DNA of 12,773 nt from Candidatus Schekmanbacteria bacterium. GTDB lineage: Bacteria; CSSED10-310; JACPHN01. Position numbers and translations under genes: made by a program. Under the pieces are notes generated by a model that did not search any database, had not been told where the DNA came from, and was given only the letters and a program-made list of their open reading frames with translations. Numbering within the stretch: position 1 is the stretch's first letter; each line of letters begins with the position of its first letter. This document shows, piece by piece, positions 319-12,773 of the stretch. The DNA is taken from NCBI GenBank assembly GCA_016188575.1, contig JACPHN010000053.1, forward strand, positions 1 to 12,773, in the 5' to 3' direction.

Positions 319-1164
319 GTGTCCCACCTGGCACGCCCAAACGAACGACCCCGCAATTCCGGCGAGAACCGGTTGCATGTTGACCAGCCAGGGGCATTAT
401 CCCCGCCCTCGCCGCCCCAGAAGAACGTCGCTGACAACGCCGAATCCAGCGAAAACGCCACGCGCGGCGGCAGCACGTATCGGCTCATCAGCGATCACCT
501 CGGCAGCGTGCGCCTGGTGGTCGACGCGGCGACCGGGGCGGTGGCGCAGCGAATCGACTACGACGCCTCGGGGCGGGTGCTGCTGGACACGAATCCGGGC
601 TTTCAGCCGTTCGGGTTCGCGGGCGGGCTGTACGACCCGGACACCGGGCTCGTGCGCTTCGGAGCGAGAGATTACGACGCTGAGGTCGGGCGCTGGACGG
701 TTCGCGATCCGATCTTGTTCCGGGGCGGCCAGGCAAACCTGTTCGTGTACGTCCGAAACGACCCTGTCAATCTGACGGATCCGTGGGGACTCGAGGGCTT
801 GTCCGAGTGTCTGGTCAATTACCTGGAATTGGAATTCGACCGCTTTAGCGTAGAGGACGTGGACATCTACGAGGGTTTTCCAGCGTGGTCCAAGCCATTT
901 ATCGATGGGACCGAGCAAGCATTTACACTTGGAGACAACATCTATTTTGGAAAAGAGGAATACAAACCGTTAACCAGGAAGGGCCTGGAACTTATTGTGC
1001 ACGAGCTGCATCACGTTGAGCAGTATGCGATCCTTGGAAAGGTCGGTTTTCTACGTGAATACTTGAAGCAACGGTCAGACGCGAAGAAGCAGGGTAACAA
1101 TCCAGACGAAATACCGATTGGGAAGGAGGCAGACTCGAGGGCAGAAAAAATAAGAACGACATAA
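319..1164 (+). CDS. Orphan RHS core fragment with C-terminal HExxH metallopeptidase toxin domain
   Basis: This is the 3' end of an RHS-repeat gene. Residues about 52-157 (counted from GTG 319) match the end of the RHS core: [16 protein letters not shown], then [25 protein letters not shown], and the closing DPWG at 154-157, after which RHS C-termini diverge. The C-terminal domain, about 124 residues, has HELHH at 228-232 (an HExxH zinc site) and a candidate third ligand Glu270 in KEADSRAE, similar to short metallopeptidase toxins of polymorphic toxin systems. RHS proteins are normally far longer, with a signal or secretion N-terminus and many YD repeats. None of that is present, and residues 1-50 do not look like RHS sequence, so this is probably a displaced or truncated cassette. 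The 319 start has no clear ribosome site and is doubtful. The toxin role is inferred from family architecture. Confidence 0.75.
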
Positions 1165-5120: not shown

Positions 5121-5612
5121 ATGAGGATCTTGCCGCATTGTGACGACTTTGCCGTTGAGCGCGCGCGCCTAAGAAGGGCCGGGCGGCGGCTGGTATTTAC
5201 CAACGGCTGCTTTGACCTGCTGCACGTCGGGCATGTGCGCTACCTGCGGGAAGCGAGGGCCCTCGGCGATTGCCTGCTCGTTGCGGTGAACGCCGACGAA
5301 ACCGTGCGCGCGCTCAAAGGACCGGCGCGGCCGCTCAATCCCCTGGCTGCTCGCCTCGAAGTGCTCGCCGCGCTGAGCTGCGTCGATTACGTGATGCCGT
5401 TTTTCGAGGAAACGCCAACCAAGGTCATCGCGGCGATCGTCCCGGACGTCCTCGTCAAGGGCGGTGACTGGCCGGTGCACCTGATTGCCGGCAGGGAGAT
5501 CGTCGAAGCTGCGGGAGGTATCGTCATGAGCCTGAGCCTCTCACCCGGTGTCTCCACGACGGCGCTGATCAGCCGTGCCGTCGCTCCCAACCACTCAGGA
5601 CCTTGCAGCTAA
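5121..5612 (+). CDS. rfaE2: D-glycero-beta-D-manno-heptose 1-phosphate adenylyltransferase
   Basis: The product has 163 residues. It is the stand-alone form of the cytidylyltransferase-like domain that forms the C-terminal half of E. coli HldE, and makes ADP-heptose from heptose 1-phosphate and ATP for the lipopolysaccharide inner core. [13 protein letters not shown] (26-38) carries the HxGH nucleotidyltransferase motif (His35, His38). RLEVLAAL, then VLVKGGDW and VSTTALI are the other family landmarks; KGGDY is the more common form of the second. No sugar-kinase domain is attached, so the kinase half (rfaE1/hldA) must be encoded elsewhere. The gene starts at ATG 5121, and its stop lies about 50 bases before the preferred Mfd start. 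The Mfd frame itself is open across the overlap. Confidence 0.93.
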
Positions 5613-5662
5613 CGGGCGCCGCCTTGCCGAATCTCTCCCCCTGGGAACAAGGCAATCAACAA

Positions 5663-8600
5663 GTGACCTTGTTGCGGTCGAATCCGGCGCGCACCGTCGC
5701 GCGCCTGCTCGAGCTCTGCGCCCGCACTCCCGCATACTCCAGCGTCGTTGCTCAGCTCGAGGCCGGAGAGACTGACCTCTCTGTGCATGGCACGTGGGGG
5801 CTTTTTTCCGCGCTCGTCATCGACAGCTTGCGCCGGCGATCCACTGCGCCGATGCTGGTAGTATGCGCCACGGAAGCGGCGACGAGCCTCCTGCTCAGGA
5901 ACCTCTCGACGCTGGCTCAGCCCCAGAGCGCCCCGACCGACACGGAAGATGGCAATCCCCGCTACCGGCCCAACGAGCTCATCGACGAAGCGGGCGGCGC
6001 ACCCAAGATCTACGCCTCATTCCCCTCCACCGACGTGCTGCCCTATGACGAGTTGCCGCCCTCCATGGACCGCATCGGGCAGCGGCACAAGGTCTTGCAC
6101 GGGCTCGCGACCGGCCGTCAGCCGGCGGTTGTGGCCTCCGTCGACGCGCTGCTGAGCAGAGTGCTGCCCCGGGATCTGCTGGCGTCTTCCGTGATCGACC
6201 TCGAGCTCTTCCAGGAGATCGACCGCGACGACTTGCTCGGCCGTTTGCACCGCCTCGGGTATCGACGCACTGCCATGGTGCACGATCCCGGTGAGATGGC
6301 GCTTCGCGGCGGGATCGTCGATATCTTCCCCGCAGGCGCGCGCAATCCCCTGCGCCTGGAGCTTTTCGGGGATCAACTCGAGAGTCTTCGCGAGTTCGAC
6401 ATCGGCTCTCAGCGGTCGCTGGTTACCCTGATGCATGCGCGCGTATTCCCGACCCGCGACATCGTGTATGTGCCGGAGCTCAAGAAAGAGGCGCGCCGGA
6501 ACCTGTTGCGCCTGGCGCGCAACGAAGGGCGGGACCCCGCCGCCATCGAGCCGATCCAGGAGCGGTTCGATCGCATGGAGTATTTCCCCGGCATCGAGCG
6601 CTATTTCTCGGTGCTGTGCCCGGCGTCGGCGACGCTCTTCAATTATTTGGCCGACGAGTCAACCATCGTCGTTTGCGACTGGGATCGCGTGCGCAAGCGT
6701 CTTCAGGAGCAAGACGAGGTGGTCGCCCGCGAGTCGCAGGCGGTGCGATCAGAAGGTGCTTTGGTGCCTGGACCTGCGGAGCTCTTCATGGATGCAGCGG
6801 AGCTCGCGGCCCAGTTGGAGTCGCGAAGAACGATTCGCACCACCCTGTTCGACCTTGAACGCGACCGCCGCGCGCACCACGTCACCTGCGACTTGCGATC
6901 CGTTCCGGTCTACAAGGGGAAGCTCGATACCCTCCTGGCGCTCTTGCCAGAGAAGCTCGCTGCCGGACGCACCGTGTTTCTGCTCGCCAATGCCCAGGCA
7001 GAGCTCAATTTGCTGAGTGAGCGGTTGCGCGAGCCGGCGATGCGCGAGCTCTTGCCGGACGAGATGCTCGGAGATCGCCTCGTCATCGACCTTCTCGACC
7101 TCACTGAAGGCGTCGAAATCCCGGACGCGGACGCCGTCATCATCACCGAGCGGGAGCTTTTTGGCGAGCACGAACCGCAACGGCGGCGCCGCCGTCCGTC
7201 TCCGGAGGCGCTGCTCCAGCAGCTCAACGAGCTCCACCCCAACGATTACGCTGTGCACGTGGATCACGGAATCGGGCGGTATGAAGGACTGGTGGAGCTG
7301 TGTGTCGACGGCATTCGCGAGGACTACGTCCTGTTGCGTTACGCGGATAACCACAAGCTCTATGTTCCCGTCGACAAGCTGGAGCTGATCAAGCGCTACC
7401 GCTCCGCGGAGGCCGGCGCTGAAATCCAGTTGGACCGCCTCGGCGGCAAGAACTGGGGCAAGACCAAGAGCAAGGTGAGGAAGGAGCTGCGCGACCTGGC
7501 CGAGGAGCTGCTGCGCACTTCGGCTCGTCGCGCCGCGGCAACCGGCTTCGCCTTCGACGAGGACGATCACTTGCAACGGGAGCTCGAGGCAACGTTTCCA
7601 TATCGCGAGACCCGCGATCAGCTTGCCGCGATCGAGGACGTAAAGGCCGACCTCATGTCGCTCAAGCCGATGGACAGACTCGTCTGCGGCGATGCCGGCT
7701 TCGGCAAGACGGAGGTGGCGCTGCGAGCGGCGTTCAAGGTGGCGAGCCAGGGCAAGCAGGTCGCCTTTATCTGCCCCACGACGATTCTCGCGCAGCAGCA
7801 CTACGAAACGCTAACCGAGCGCTTTGCCTCGTTTCCGATGAGGATTGCGCTCCTGTCCCGATTTCAGAGCCCCGGAGAGCTCCGGAGCGCGGTTCGCGAC
7901 CTGGCTGCAGGCAATGTCGACATTGCTGTCGGCACCCATCGCCTGCTGCAGGCTGACGTTTCGTTTCGGTCGCTCGGCCTGGTCGTGATCGACGAAGAGC
8001 ACCGATTCGGGGTCGGCCACAAGGAGAAGCTGAAGCAACTGCGCGCGACTGTCGACGTCCTGGCCCTGACGGCAACGCCGATTCCGCGCACCTTGCACAT
8101 GTCACTCCTCGGACTGCGCGACATCAGCGTCATCCAGACGCCGCCCGCGGATCGCTTGCCGATTCACACGAGAATAGCGGAATTCTCGCCTGAGCTGGTG
8201 CGTGAGGCGACAATGGCAGAGCTTGATCGCGCCGGACAGGTCTTTTTCGTCCACAATCGCGTGCAATCGATCGATGCGGTGGCTGCGTACCTCGGACGAC
8301 TGATTCCAGAAGCAAAGATCGCGGTCGCCCACGGCCAGATGCGCTCGGCGGACCTGGAACGCGTCATGCTCGAGTTCTACCGGCGCCGGCACAACGTCCT
8401 GGTGTGCACGAGCATCATCGAGAGCGGCCTGGACGTGCCACTGGCGAACACGATCTTGATCAATCGCGCCGATCGCTTTGGGCTGGCACAGCTCTACCAG
8501 CTCCGCGGTCGCGTTGGACGCGAGAAACGCAAGGCCTATGCGTATCTGCTGGTGAGCGGCCACGACGCTCTGACGGAAGTTTCGCAAAAGCGCCTAAAGG

Positions 8601-9184
8601 CAATTCAAGAGCACACGGAAGCGGGAAGTGGCTTTCGCATCGCGTCACAGGACTTGGAGATTCGCGGCGGGGGAGCGCTGCTCGGTCACGAGCAGAGTGG
8701 TCACGTCGACGAAGTGGGCTACGAAATGTATCTGGAGCTCATTCAGGACGCGGTTCGCGAGGTGCGAGGCGAGGTTGCGGAGGAGCGGTTGGAGCCGACG
8801 GTGAAGCTGTCGGAGAGCGCATTTCTGCCGTCGACCTATATCCCGGAAATGTCCGCGCGGCTCAGCGCCTACCGGGAGCTCGGCGGGACGCGCACCGACG
8901 CGGAGCTGGCGGAGACGGTGGCCGCGCTCGAGGACCGCTACGGAAAGCTGCCGCCCGAGGCCTGTGCCTTGGTGGCGGTCGTGCGGCTGAAGAACCTGGC
9001 GCGGGAGCTCAAGATCTTGAAGGTCGAGCAGGCCGGCGGTACTATTGGCCTACAGTTTTCCGGAGCCGCCGCGCGCCTCTCGCTCACCCTGGCCGAAAAA
9101 GACCCGCGTCTCCCACTCGGGGAGCAGGTGTGGGAGCTCGTTGCTTCTGCCGCTGCCCGGGGGGACATCCCACCGCCGGGCTGA
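5663..9184 (+). CDS. mfd: Transcription-repair coupling factor Mfd
   Basis: Mfd is an ATP-driven translocase that removes stalled RNA polymerase and recruits UvrA. From GTG 5663 it has 1173 residues, close to E. coli Mfd (1148). In order: a UvrB-like N-terminal region (LPYDELPPSMDRIGQRH; RGGIVDIFPAG), an RNA-polymerase-interaction domain of CarD type (VHVDHGIGRYEGL to KLYVPVDKLELI), the WGKTKSKVRK linker, then the RecG-like motor with Walker A GDAGFGKT (676-683), DEEHRFGV (777-784), ATPIPRTLHMSLLGLRD and QLRGRVGR (946-953), and the C-terminal TRCF domain. All helicase motifs are intact. A TTG at 5603 would add 20 residues unlike the family and has its AGGA only 2 bases away; GTG 5663 has AAGG about 10 bases upstream. 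The choice of start is uncertain. Confidence 0.96.
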   Translation: MTLLRSNPARTVARLLELCARTPAYSSVVAQLEAGETDLSVHGTWGLFSALVIDSLRRRSTAPMLVVCATEAATSLLLRNLSTLAQPQSAPTDTEDGNPRYRPNELIDEAGGAPKIYASFPSTDVLPYDELPPSMDRIGQRHKVLHGLATGRQPAVVASVDALLSRVLPRDLLASSVIDLELFQEIDRDDLLGRLHRLGYRRTAMVHDPGEMALRGGIVDIFPAGARNPLRLELFGDQLESLREFDIGSQRSLVTLMHARVFPTRDIVYVPELKKEARRNLLRLARNEGRDPAAIEPIQERFDRMEYFPGIERYFSVLCPASATLFNYLADESTIVVCDWDRVRKRLQEQDEVVARESQAVRSEGALVPGPAELFMDAAELAAQLESRRTIRTTLFDLERDRRAHHVTCDLRSVPVYKGKLDTLLALLPEKLAAGRTVFLLANAQAELNLLSERLREPAMRELLPDEMLGDRLVIDLLDLTEGVEIPDADAVIITERELFGEHEPQRRRRRPSPEALLQQLNELHPNDYAVHVDHGIGRYEGLVELCVDGIREDYVLLRYADNHKLYVPVDKLELIKRYRSAEAGAEIQLDRLGGKNWGKTKSKVRKELRDLAEELLRTSARRAAATGFAFDEDDHLQRELEATFPYRETRDQLAAIEDVKADLMSLKPMDRLVCGDAGFGKTEVALRAAFKVASQGKQVAFICPTTILAQQHYETLTERFASFPMRIALLSRFQSPGELRSAVRDLAAGNVDIAVGTHRLLQADVSFRSLGLVVIDEEHRFGVGHKEKLKQLRATVDVLALTATPIPRTLHMSLLGLRDISVIQTPPADRLPIHTRIAEFSPELVREATMAELDRAGQVFFVHNRVQSIDAVAAYLGRLIPEAKIAVAHGQMRSADLERVMLEFYRRRHNVLVCTSIIESGLDVPLANTILINRADRFGLAQLYQLRGRVGREKRKAYAYLLVSGHDALTEVSQKRLKAIQEHTEAGSGFRIASQDLEIRGGGALLGHEQSGHVDEVGYEMYLELIQDAVREVRGEVAEERLEPTVKLSESAFLPSTYIPEMSARLSAYRELGGTRTDAELAETVAALEDRYGKLPPEACALVAVVRLKNLARELKILKVEQAGGTIGLQFSGAAARLSLTLAEKDPRLPLGEQVWELVASAAARGDIPPPG

Positions 9185-9230
9185 GGGCCGATGAGAGTAA
9201 CTCGCGGACTTAAATGAAGGCACAGCCCGC

Positions 9231-10247
9231 ATGGGCAGCACGTCACATCAGCCAGCTTCCGCGCCGGTCGCCGCCGTCTCGGCCGTGTGCGGAGCGCTGC
9301 TCTTGCTGGCCGCCACCGCGTGCGATGGAACCTTTTTTGCCGACGACGTCATCGTCGCCAAAGTCGGCGACGCGACGCTGACTCTCGCCGCATTCGAGGA
9401 GCTCTACGCGTCGTATGAAGCCATCGTGACCGCCGAGCTCGGGGCCCCAGGGAAGGCGGGCATCGATTCTCGCCGCCGATTCTTCCTGCAGGACTGGGCG
9501 TTACGACAGCTCTTCGAGGAAGAGGGGCGGCGTCTCGGCCTGGTGCCCTCCGACGCCGACGTTCGTCGCGCCGAACGCGGGATTCGCCGCATGTTCCTAC
9601 CCGGCGAGTACCAGCGCGTACTGGCAGAGCGGAATATCGACGGAGCCATTGCGGGACGGCGGCTCGCGGAGGATCTCGCCGCGATCAAGGTCATCGCCGC
9701 CCGCATTTCGGTGCCCCAGGTGGATGAATCCGAGATCGCCGCATACTACGAGGAAAACCGGCAGCAGTTCGAGCGGCCCGCTGAGGTCGATGTGCAGCAC
9801 ATGATCCTGACCTCGGAGGAAACCGCCAAGGATATCGCGCGGCGTCTTGCCAAAGGGGAGCCCTTTGCTCAGCTCGCGCTGGCTTATGGTCAACCCGGTT
9901 CCCTGTCGCTCGGGCTCGAGGGGGGCATCTACTCGCTCGCCGCGCGCGATCTCCCGGCACCGTTGCAGGCGGAAATAGCGCACTTGCGAGATGGCGAAGT
10001 GAGCGCCCCGGTGCCGCTGGATGAAGAGTTTCACGTGCTCCGGCTCGTCGCTCGCCGCCCCGCGGGTCTCTACGAGCTAGCTGAGGTGCGTACCGTGATT
10101 GCCACGAGCCTCGGCAGAAAACGGCTCGCGCAAGCGTACGCGACGCTTGTCGTCGAGCTGCGGCAGCGCGCCAACCCTTATGAGCTCTACTACGACCGTA
10201 TCCCTCTGCTCGAAGAGCGCGATCAGAAAGACCTGGAAGTGCCATGA
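9231..10247 (+). CDS. Exported parvulin-type peptidyl-prolyl isomerase, possible lipoprotein
   Basis: The product has 338 residues. The N-terminus is a signal sequence with a hydrophobic core (VCGALLLLAATAC, 19-31). Cys31 could be lipidated, though Ala at -3 is not the ideal lipobox residue. A SurA_N-like helical region follows (VIVAKVGDATLTLAAFEELY onward). A parvulin rotamase domain starts at VDVQHMIL, about residue 184, and continues through GEPFAQLALAYG, GLEGGIYSL and FHVLRLV. It probably assists folding of secreted or outer-membrane proteins in the periplasm. The gene starts 46 bases after mfd, with only a weak AAGG upstream, and overlaps the next PPIase gene by four bases (ATGA, 10244-10247). 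Two adjacent PPIase genes after mfd suggest paired chaperones. The family assignment is firm; the lipidation is not. Confidence 0.88.
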   Translation: MGSTSHQPASAPVAAVSAVCGALLLLAATACDGTFFADDVIVAKVGDATLTLAAFEELYASYEAIVTAELGAPGKAGIDSRRRFFLQDWALRQLFEEEGRRLGLVPSDADVRRAERGIRRMFLPGEYQRVLAERNIDGAIAGRRLAEDLAAIKVIAARISVPQVDESEIAAYYEENRQQFERPAEVDVQHMILTSEETAKDIARRLAKGEPFAQLALAYGQPGSLSLGLEGGIYSLAARDLPAPLQAEIAHLRDGEVSAPVPLDEEFHVLRLVARRPAGLYELAEVRTVIATSLGRKRLAQAYATLVVELRQRANPYELYYDRIPLLEERDQKDLEVP

Positions 10248-11383
10248 CCATACCGCCAGCCGCATCGGCTCGACCGCAGCGTCCCTCGCTCCTTCGCCCG
10301 CTCCTTGTGTGCACTGCCACCGTCATGCTCCTCGGCGGCGGCTCCGCGGTCGCCCGCGTCCTGGACCGGATCATCGCGCAGGTGAACGACAGAATTATCA
10401 CGCTAAGTGAGCTTCACGAGCGACTTGCGCCCGCCGTATATGAGCTGAGGAGGCAGTACGAGGGGGAGAAGTTCCAGGCGGAGCTGCAAAAGGTCCGCGC
10501 CGGGTTGCTGAATACCATGGTCGACGAGATCCTGCTGCTGCAGCACGCGGACGAAATGGGCATCGCGATCGAGGAGCAAGCGCTTGCCGCCGCTATTGCG
10601 GAGGTCAAGGATCGCGCCGGAATTGCCACCGACGAGGAGCTGTCGCAGGCGCTCACCGCGGAGGGGATGAACCTTGCGACATACCGGGCACACCTTCGCG
10701 ATCAGCTCAAGGTGATGCGCGTCATTGGCGTCGAGGTGCGCTCGAAGATCGATATCCTGGATTCTGAGATCACCGCGCGCTACGAAGAAACCAAGGAGAC
10801 CGAGTTTGTCGTCCCGGAGCGCGTTTCCGTCTGGCAGATTCTGCGCAAGCTTCCACCCGAGGCCACGCCGGAGCAGATTGACGAGGCTCGCAAAGCGTCG
10901 ACCGAGGTCCTTGCGAAGCTCAAAGACGCTCTGAGCGGTGTCACCGACTTTGCATCGCGCGCGCAAGCTTTTGCCGCCCTTGCCAAAAGCTATTCAGAGG
11001 AACCCGCGGGGCAGGAAGGCGGCGATATTGGCTCGTTCGCGCGCGGGCAGATGGTCGCGGAGCTGGAGAAGGTCGCCTTTGCTCTGGAGGTTGGCGGCTA
11101 CTCGGAGCCCGTGCAGACCGAGTTCGGTTTTCACATCGTCTTTGTCGCTGCGCACTCCGCGACGAGCTACCGGCCTCTGGACGAGGTGCGGGACGCGATT
11201 TCCGATGCTTTGTTCAAGGAGAGGTTTGACGCGGCCCGGCGAGATTACATCGCCCGCCTCAGAGATCGCGCGTACGTCAGCGTTCTTGGGACCGCGGGTG
11301 AAGCCACTGAGAGCTCTGTTGATGCGAACGCCGGTGCGGGAAAGAGCGCTGGCGCGGCAGAGTCGGCGCAAGAGGAGAAGTGA
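10244..11383 (+). CDS. surA: SurA-like periplasmic chaperone and peptidyl-prolyl isomerase
   Basis: The product has 379 residues. A signal peptide (about 1-37; core LLVCTATVMLLGG, cleavage probably after AVA) precedes the SurA N-terminal chaperone domain, whose start VLDRIIAQVNDRIIT (39-53) is highly characteristic. One parvulin domain follows, from VSVWQIL through FAALAKSYSEEPAGQEGGDIGSF and FGFHIVFV. E. coli SurA has two parvulin domains; this one has a single domain, a common arrangement outside the Gammaproteobacteria. The C-terminal 30 or so residues are low-complexity Ala, Gly, Ser and Glu. SurA-type proteins escort outer-membrane proteins across the periplasm. The start overlaps the preceding PPIase stop by four bases. 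The gene symbol is by analogy; one-domain members also resemble the wider SurA/PrsA/PpiC families. Confidence 0.9.
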   Translation: MTIPPAASARPQRPSLLRPLLVCTATVMLLGGGSAVARVLDRIIAQVNDRIITLSELHERLAPAVYELRRQYEGEKFQAELQKVRAGLLNTMVDEILLLQHADEMGIAIEEQALAAAIAEVKDRAGIATDEELSQALTAEGMNLATYRAHLRDQLKVMRVIGVEVRSKIDILDSEITARYEETKETEFVVPERVSVWQILRKLPPEATPEQIDEARKASTEVLAKLKDALSGVTDFASRAQAFAALAKSYSEEPAGQEGGDIGSFARGQMVAELEKVAFALEVGGYSEPVQTEFGFHIVFVAAHSATSYRPLDEVRDAISDALFKERFDAARRDYIARLRDRAYVSVLGTAGEATESSVDANAGAGKSAGAAESAQEEK

Positions 11384-12130: not shown

Positions 12131-12399
12131 CGAATGCAACAGTTGTTTCGTTGCGGGTCCGAAGGCACATTCGGCCGACGCCCGCAAGCGGGGGCAGGCA
12201 GGGAGGCGCTGTCGCATCGACGTCTCGCGGCGGTGGATTCAGGTGGACCGCGTCGCTCGCAAATCGCGGCCAATCTCGCTATCCTAATCCTGTTGTCCGA
12301 ATTTGCGTATTCCGAAGCCAATCGCGGCTTCCTGGACCCCAATGCTTTCCGCCGGCTTGCCTGCCACAAGTCGCAGAGGTGCAGGGACGGTCAACTACC

Positions 12400-12427
12400 C
12401 CGGCCTGAAGGCCGGAGCTTGCTCCGG
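12400..12427. repeat. Two mutually exclusive hairpins at the likely left element end
   Basis: CCGGCC-TGAA-GGCCGG (12400-12415) and CCGGAG-CTTG-CTCCGG (12412-12427) share CCGG at 12412-12415, so only one can form at a time. The preceding TCAACTACCCC resembles the hairpin-bearing ends of IS200/IS605-family elements bound by TnpA transposases. It may mark the left end of the iscB element, be the first omega-RNA stem, or both. Confidence 0.5.
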
Positions 12428-12704
12428 AGGAAGGTCGTAGGCCGCGAGGCTTGCATGTTGACCAGACCAAATTGTTGAGATTGGCAATCGTTGAAACAGA
12501 TGCGTTGGATAATCAGCAGAAGTAACACTCCGAGGTGCTTCCTCAGCCTCGGACCCTGTAAGTGCGCATTGCAGACAAACCGTAGGGTCGGGGCGAAACG
12601 GATGTGCACAGACGGCTGCTGTTCAACAGGGTCGAGGGGAGACCGTCGAGCAAGCCAGCTTGGCGGCGTCACAAGCCCTTTACGGGGACCTCTTCGGCGG
12701 TATT

Positions 12705-12709
12705 GGAGG
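12705..12709 (+). promoter_or_regulatory. Shine-Dalgarno site of iscB, inside an RNA stem
   Basis: GGAGG lies 5 bases before the ATG at 12715. Four of its bases are part of GAGGTC (12706-12711), which is perfectly complementary to GACCTC (12687-12692). Folding of the RNA 3' end would hide the site, so omega-RNA formation and translation of iscB may compete. Confidence 0.65.
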
Positions 12710-12714
12710 TCACG

Positions 12715-12773
12715 ATGGTTTTTGTGTTAGACAAGCGCAAACGACCGCTGACGCCGTGCGCCGAAGGGCGGGC
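12715..12773 (+). CDS. iscB: IscB-type RNA-guided nuclease, N-terminus only (cut by window edge)
   Basis: Nineteen complete codons are visible before the window ends: MVFVLDKRKRPLTPCAEGR. This is the hallmark start of the RRXRR/PLMP domain of IscB proteins, in which V(F/Y)VLDK is followed by a short basic stretch and a P-L-x-P motif (here PLTP, residues 11-14; PLMP is commoner). IscB is the OMEGA nuclease related to Cas9: a split RuvC domain interrupted by a bridge helix and an HNH domain, guided by an omega RNA to cut DNA. None of those domains can be seen here, so it is not known whether the protein is complete, catalytically intact or an HNH-less relative (IsrB). GGAGG 5 bases upstream supports the start, and the structured non-coding stretch before it supports the identity. 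Confidence 0.82.
   Translation, partial: MVFVLDKRKRPLTPCAEGR

What the first reader, a model, noticed from the sequence alone, without database searches (positions are those of the whole stretch)
12391..12773. An OMEGA (IscB plus omega RNA) locus cut by the right edge of the window
The last 59 bases encode a clear IscB N-terminus with a good ribosome site. The 320 bases before it hold no gene but many complementary segments, in exactly the place where omega RNAs are encoded. IscB systems are RNA-guided nucleases ancestral to Cas9; each natural locus has its own guide and scaffold, and this one has a PLTP variant of the usual PLMP motif. The window is centred on housekeeping genes, so the locus is easy to miss.
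Basis: partly seen in the sequence, partly recalled or inferred. Interest (0 to 1): 0.88.

Follow-up and report, generated by a model that had tools for sequence, protein, structure and literature searches.

The report
IscB–ωRNA mobile element, contig-truncated
The end of this contig holds the left half of a real IscB–omega-RNA mobile element (an RNA-guided DNA cutter from the ancestry of Cas9), one of about nine sister copies in this genome, and the better-assembled copies show that these elements sit exactly at the start codons of host genes.

Summary
Confirmed. Window 12390-12647 (+) matches the Rfam HEARO/omega-RNA model over its full length above the curated cut-off (84.8 vs 83 bits), and 12715-12773 encodes an IscB N-terminus. 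The window is a whole assembly contig, so this copy cannot be extended. Sister copies in the same genome can be: three encode open 446-481-aa IscB proteins (one scores 438.6 bits against the IscB equivalog, cut-off 175) with RuvC and HNH motifs in place, dN/dS 0.12-0.20. PLTP is shared by at least four copies, so it marks a sub-lineage.

Right edges abut ATGA (13 of 14; one GTGA), and 11 of 14 open an ORF of at least 100 aa at that ATG. In relatives 32 of 32 recognised right ends abut ATGA. In this genome IscB's stop TGA lies inside that ATGA, overlapping the host start codon.

New member of a known kind. I recall an ATGA preference for HEARO elements but could not check it; the stop/start overlap may be undescribed. 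This copy's host gene and most of its protein are not assembled.

The parts
12370..12389 (+). Predicted natural guide: left flank of the element, containing a Shine-Dalgarno-like GAGGTG at 12376-12381; predicted target is this sequence followed by ATGA
   Evidence: Copies agree from GTCAAC on and differ before it; anti-SD energy -9.5 kcal/mol, family mean -7.8 vs background -3.4. Guide length is from knowledge of HEARO/OMEGA systems, not measured.
12390..12647 (+). HEARO / omega-RNA scaffold; 12390 is the left end of the element
   Evidence: RF02033, 84.8 bits, cut-off 83, full model; covariation
12705..12709 (+). Ribosome-binding site GGAGG of iscB
   Evidence: read directly; conserved in most sister copies
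12715..12773 (+). First 19 codons of iscB (PLTP sub-lineage), cut by the contig end
   Evidence: translation; the matching C69 and C170 copies continue for at least 75 codons including the RuvC-I Asp motif

Best explanation
This is the left half of an IscB–omega-RNA (HEARO/ISC-type, OMEGA) mobile element belonging to a multicopy family in this genome. Shown by sequence: the omega-RNA scaffold and IscB start are present; the element begins at 12390; right ends of sister copies abut ATGA, usually the start codon of a host gene; in sister copies IscB has no stop codon of its own and ends on the TGA of that ATGA. Inferred: the omega RNA carries about 16-24 nt of the left flank (here a gene's ribosome-binding-site region) as guide; IscB uses ATGA as its target-adjacent motif; it cuts the empty site left after excision, so the element is copied back from a sister chromosome; a Y1 transposase acting in trans moves it. 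The stop/start overlap may let ribosomes finishing IscB re-initiate on the host gene and so soften the insertion.
For: HEARO model hit and covariation; nine family-A copies with unrelated left flanks; full-length sisters with IscB equivalog, RRXRR and HNH hits and dN/dS 0.12-0.20; 13 of 14 right ends in this genome at ATGA, 11 of 14 opening an ORF of at least 100 aa there; 32 of 32 recognised right ends in relatives at ATGA, 23 of 32 with such an ORF against 27% of control sites, p 1.8e-7; host proteins aligning with curated families from residues 1-8; SD-like left flanks in this genome, p about 5e-5.
Against: This copy's own right end, host gene and 95% of its IscB are not in the assembly. 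At least one sister (C5b) is internally deleted. C161 and C162 flanks lack a clear SD, and left flanks of distant relatives are not SD-like (p 0.24). No Y1 transposase lies in the element. No expression or cleavage data.
Confidence: 0.93

Rival explanations
1. A decayed copy: the omega-RNA scaffold and IscB start remain, but IscB beyond the contig edge is broken or internally deleted, leaving a non-autonomous element that might still supply a guide to IscB made by other copies.
For: C5b (95% identical to the window over this stretch) carries a stop and a large internal deletion of IscB; several right-end remnants exist.
Against: The PLTP copies C69 and C170 are open through the 75 codons that are assembled, and near-identical copies breaking the assembly suggest recent spread.
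Confidence: 0.3
2. The start-codon placement is only a by-product: the transposase or nuclease prefers ATGA, ATGA is common at starts, insertions inside genes are lost by selection, and the IscB-stop/host-start overlap has no role in expression.
For: Some insertions in relatives have no long ORF at the ATGA (9 of 32); Allochromatium-type elements have a non-coding tail and no overlap.
Against: In this genome the flanks are strongly SD-like and every inspected copy with an IscB C-terminus ends on the ATGA. Neither fact proves coupling.
Confidence: 0.5
3. No OMEGA locus: a chance hairpin-rich stretch followed by an unrelated ORF start.
For: None found; the Rfam margin over the cut-off is only 1.8 bits.
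Against: Full-model Rfam hit at E 2e-16, multiple copies, covariation and full-length IscB in sister copies.
Confidence: 0.01

Closest known systems
HEARO RNA (RF02033) with IscB (NF040563): OMEGA systems such as OgeuIscB and MG35-1
   Same: omega RNA directly upstream of iscB; PLMP-type N-terminus, RuvC, arginine-rich region and HNH in sister copies; variable 5' flank as guide
   Different: PLTP in this sub-lineage; IscB frame in this genome stops on the ATGA at the junction with the host gene
IscB elements of Allochromatium, Halochromatium and Burkholderiales (best 65% identity)
   Same: GTCAAC left end, right end abutting ATGA, host genes starting there
   Different: most have an earlier IscB stop and a non-coding tail; left flanks not SD-like. 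Cupriavidus and Caballeronia copies do share the stop/start overlap
IsrB (DtIsrB, PMC9581776)
   Same: PLMP domain, omega RNA, TGA-containing TAM (NTGA/TTGA)
   Different: IsrB lacks the HNH domain, which the sister proteins here have

Membership tests
HEARO / omega RNA (RF02033) | covariance-model match over the gathering score | tested here: met
   84.8 vs 83 bits, full model
IscB (OMEGA nuclease) | PLMP-type N-terminal domain behind the omega RNA | tested here: met
   19 codons in the window, PLTP variant; sisters aligned
IscB (OMEGA nuclease) | split RuvC, arginine-rich region and HNH | tested here: inconclusive
   met in sister copies; not in the assembly for this copy
IscB (OMEGA nuclease) | guide taken from the left flank and cleavage next to a TAM | not testable with these tools
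   flanks differ between copies and right ends abut ATGA, consistent but not an activity test
IS200/IS605-type autonomous transposon | Y1 tnpA within the element | tested here: not met
   no Y1 gene in the complete elements; eight Y1 matches elsewhere in the genome

The most novel reading that the evidence does not exclude
A lineage of RNA-guided IscB elements is built around start codons: its motif ATGA is the host start codon, its guides are ribosome-binding sites, its nuclease gene borrows its stop codon from the target, and the resulting ATGA overlap, with a GGAG near the element's right end, keeps the host gene translated by coupling. Insertion is thereby made tolerable and expression of host gene and nuclease is linked.
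Probability: 0.35. Interest if true: 0.6.

Novelty: new member of a known kind. Interest (0 to 1): 0.4.

Why it matters
It adds an IscB–omega-RNA family from a genome with no close relatives in the collection, with several open copies and a predicted guide and motif for each, useful for testing compact RNA-guided nucleases. The start-codon placement and the shared ATGA make a concrete, testable proposal for how a selfish RNA-guided element lowers its cost to the host.

Tried and rejected
Extending the contig: the window is the whole contig C172. Assigning one right-half contig (C88, C129, C150, C168, C152) as the continuation: sequence alone cannot decide. Finding an empty site by synteny: the nearest genomes held are only of the same phylum, and the best matches there to the neighbouring SurA-like protein are about 34% identical. 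A second target for the guide in the genome: only two sites, at 3 mismatches. An SD signal in left flanks of distant relatives: none (p 0.24). Matching the element's ends to Y1-transposase loci: only short hairpin resemblances. The primary HEARO, ISC and OMEGA papers looked up are not held, so an ATGA preference reported there is recollection only; searches of held papers returned no title or abstract describing start-codon placement or the stop/start overlap, and the passages read did not mention it. First-pass regular expressions for right ends mis-called several junctions and were replaced.

Full report
The observation. Window 12715-12773 reads MVFVLDKRKRPLTPCAEGR behind a GGAGG ribosome site. 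A scan of the whole window against Rfam gives one hit: HEARO, RF02033, 12390-12647 (+), full model, 84.8 bits against a cut-off of 83, E 2.3e-16 (alignment). The margin over the cut-off is small, so independent support was sought. A fold of 16 aligned sequences (five copies of this genome and eleven relatives) has 41 pairs, 26 with kept changes on both sides; 96% of cells pair, against 74% in shuffles and 30-46% when partners are slid by 1-3 columns.

The genome. The window is the complete contig C172 of a 9.2-Mb assembly in 275 contigs, so the right edge is an assembly break. The last 474 bases match eight other places over most of their length at 91-96%, and HEARO is found 15 times, the weakest a partial match, mostly in two families: A (GTCAACTACCCCGGCC...) and B (GTCACCTTCTCC...). 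Five family-A left halves run off contig ends (C172, C69, C170, C214, C161), and several right-half contigs carry 97-99% identical C-termini (C88, C129, C150, C168). The repeat itself is the likely cause of the break.

The protein. Sister copies in C90 and C5a (446 aa) and C162 (481 aa) are open. The C90 protein scores 438.6 bits against NCBIfam RNA-guided endonuclease IscB, cut-off 175, has Pfam RRXRR and HNH, and aligns with solved IscB chains at the RuvC-I, RuvC-II, HNH and RuvC-III motifs. Pairwise dN/dS among the three is 0.12-0.20, which fits selection on function. C5b carries a stop and a large deletion. The PLTP motif occurs in C172, C69, C170 and C214, and PLMP in C161, C162, C5a, C5b and C90: it marks a sub-lineage that has multiplied, not a private mutation. 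Whether this particular copy is intact is not known.

The insertion point. The left edge is sharp: copies agree from GTCAAC on and differ before it, which is where the guide of an omega RNA lies (for HEARO RNAs the 5' spacer is the reprogrammable part, PMC9755519). The nine family-A flanks bind anti-Shine-Dalgarno far better than background (mean -7.8 against -3.4 kcal/mol, bootstrap p about 5e-5), and only at offset 0 (shifts by 20-80 nt give -3.3 to -4.0); the window's flank GTCGCAGAGGTGCAGGGACG scores -9.5. C161 and C162 lack a clear SD. At the right edge, 14 family-A ends were recognised in this genome: 13 abut ATGA (one of them, C150, after three extra bases) and one GTGA; 11 of the 14 open an ORF of at least 100 aa at exactly that codon. 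Four of the 14 are remnants without detectable IscB. The host products include a glutamate-cysteine ligase family protein, a PAS histidine kinase, a rhomboid protein and an M50 protease.

Relatives. A scan of one genome per species (84,980 species) kept 80 loci, best 65% identical (Allochromatium, Halochromatium, Burkholderiales and others); most of the 20 loci scanned carry HEARO above the cut-off. Among 43 loci examined, 32 had a right-end motif recognised by one regular expression, and all 32 have ATGA within 10 nt of it; 23 of 32 open an ORF of at least 100 aa there, against 27% of control ATGA sites (p 1.8e-7). Related copies in the same species are not independent, so this p value is optimistic. 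Among those outside the regular expression, a few abut ATGG or GTGA instead (L110, L119, L126, L164). Several host proteins align with curated families from residues 1-8 (RmlD 1, MoeB 1, PgmG 4, YqgE 5, HisH 6, PgsA 8), so the ATG is very probably the native start. Some insertions sit where an upstream ORF would stop on the same ATGA (L098, L100, L112). Left flanks of these relatives are not SD-like, so the ribosome-site guide is shown for this genome only.

The overlap. In this genome the IscB frame stays open to the junction and stops on the TGA of ATGA in the copies with a C-terminus that were inspected, as in Cupriavidus L120/L121 and Caballeronia L104/L113. Allochromatium-type elements instead stop earlier and have a non-coding tail. 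In this genome the last bases also hold GGAG about five bases before the ATG in most copies. Overlap at ATGA is a common arrangement for translational coupling in bacteria (general knowledge), so coupling between IscB and the host gene is a reasonable but untested inference.

Mechanism. Most likely, as proposed for OMEGA systems in general (own knowledge; related discussion for TnpB in PMC8612924), IscB with its omega RNA recognises the flank sequence next to ATGA, which is rejoined only where the element has left, and cutting there promotes restoration of the element from another copy. A TGA-containing motif is known for the related IsrB (PMC9581776). A Y1 transposase in trans is the likely mover: none lies in the element, eight Y1 matches occur elsewhere, several as tnpA followed by a tnpB-like frame, with ends that resemble these only in hairpin style.

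Verdict. The finding is correct and the system is a known kind. What is worth following is the start-codon placement and the shared stop/start codon. An ATGA preference of HEARO elements was, as I recall, reported in early papers that are not held here, so novelty is claimed only for this family and, cautiously, for the overlap.

Noticed in passing
window 319-1164: ORF with a weak teneurin/RHS YD-shell match (just below cut-off) and an eCIS-core domain match, near the left contig end.
   Followed up: partly
window 5603-11383: Ordinary housekeeping block: transcription-repair coupling factor (Mfd) followed by two PPIC/SurA-type foldases.
   Followed up: partly
L096 300-539, 2708-2946, 5177-5416: Three HEARO RNAs in a row, about 2.4 kb apart, on one Allochromatium humboldtianum contig.
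   Followed up: no
L037 (C162 IscB): The 481-aa IscB of C162 carries an in-frame insertion of about 35 aa rich in Ser/Leu that the sister proteins lack.
   Followed up: no
L183, L187, L188, L191: Right-end remnants without detectable IscB, three at ATGA and one at GTGA.
   Followed up: partly
L088, L090, L093, L094: A separate family of Y1 tnpA genes, followed by a tnpB-like frame where the contig allows, with a conserved upstream hairpin GCCCCGGGCTTTAGCCCTGGGG in most copies.
   Followed up: partly
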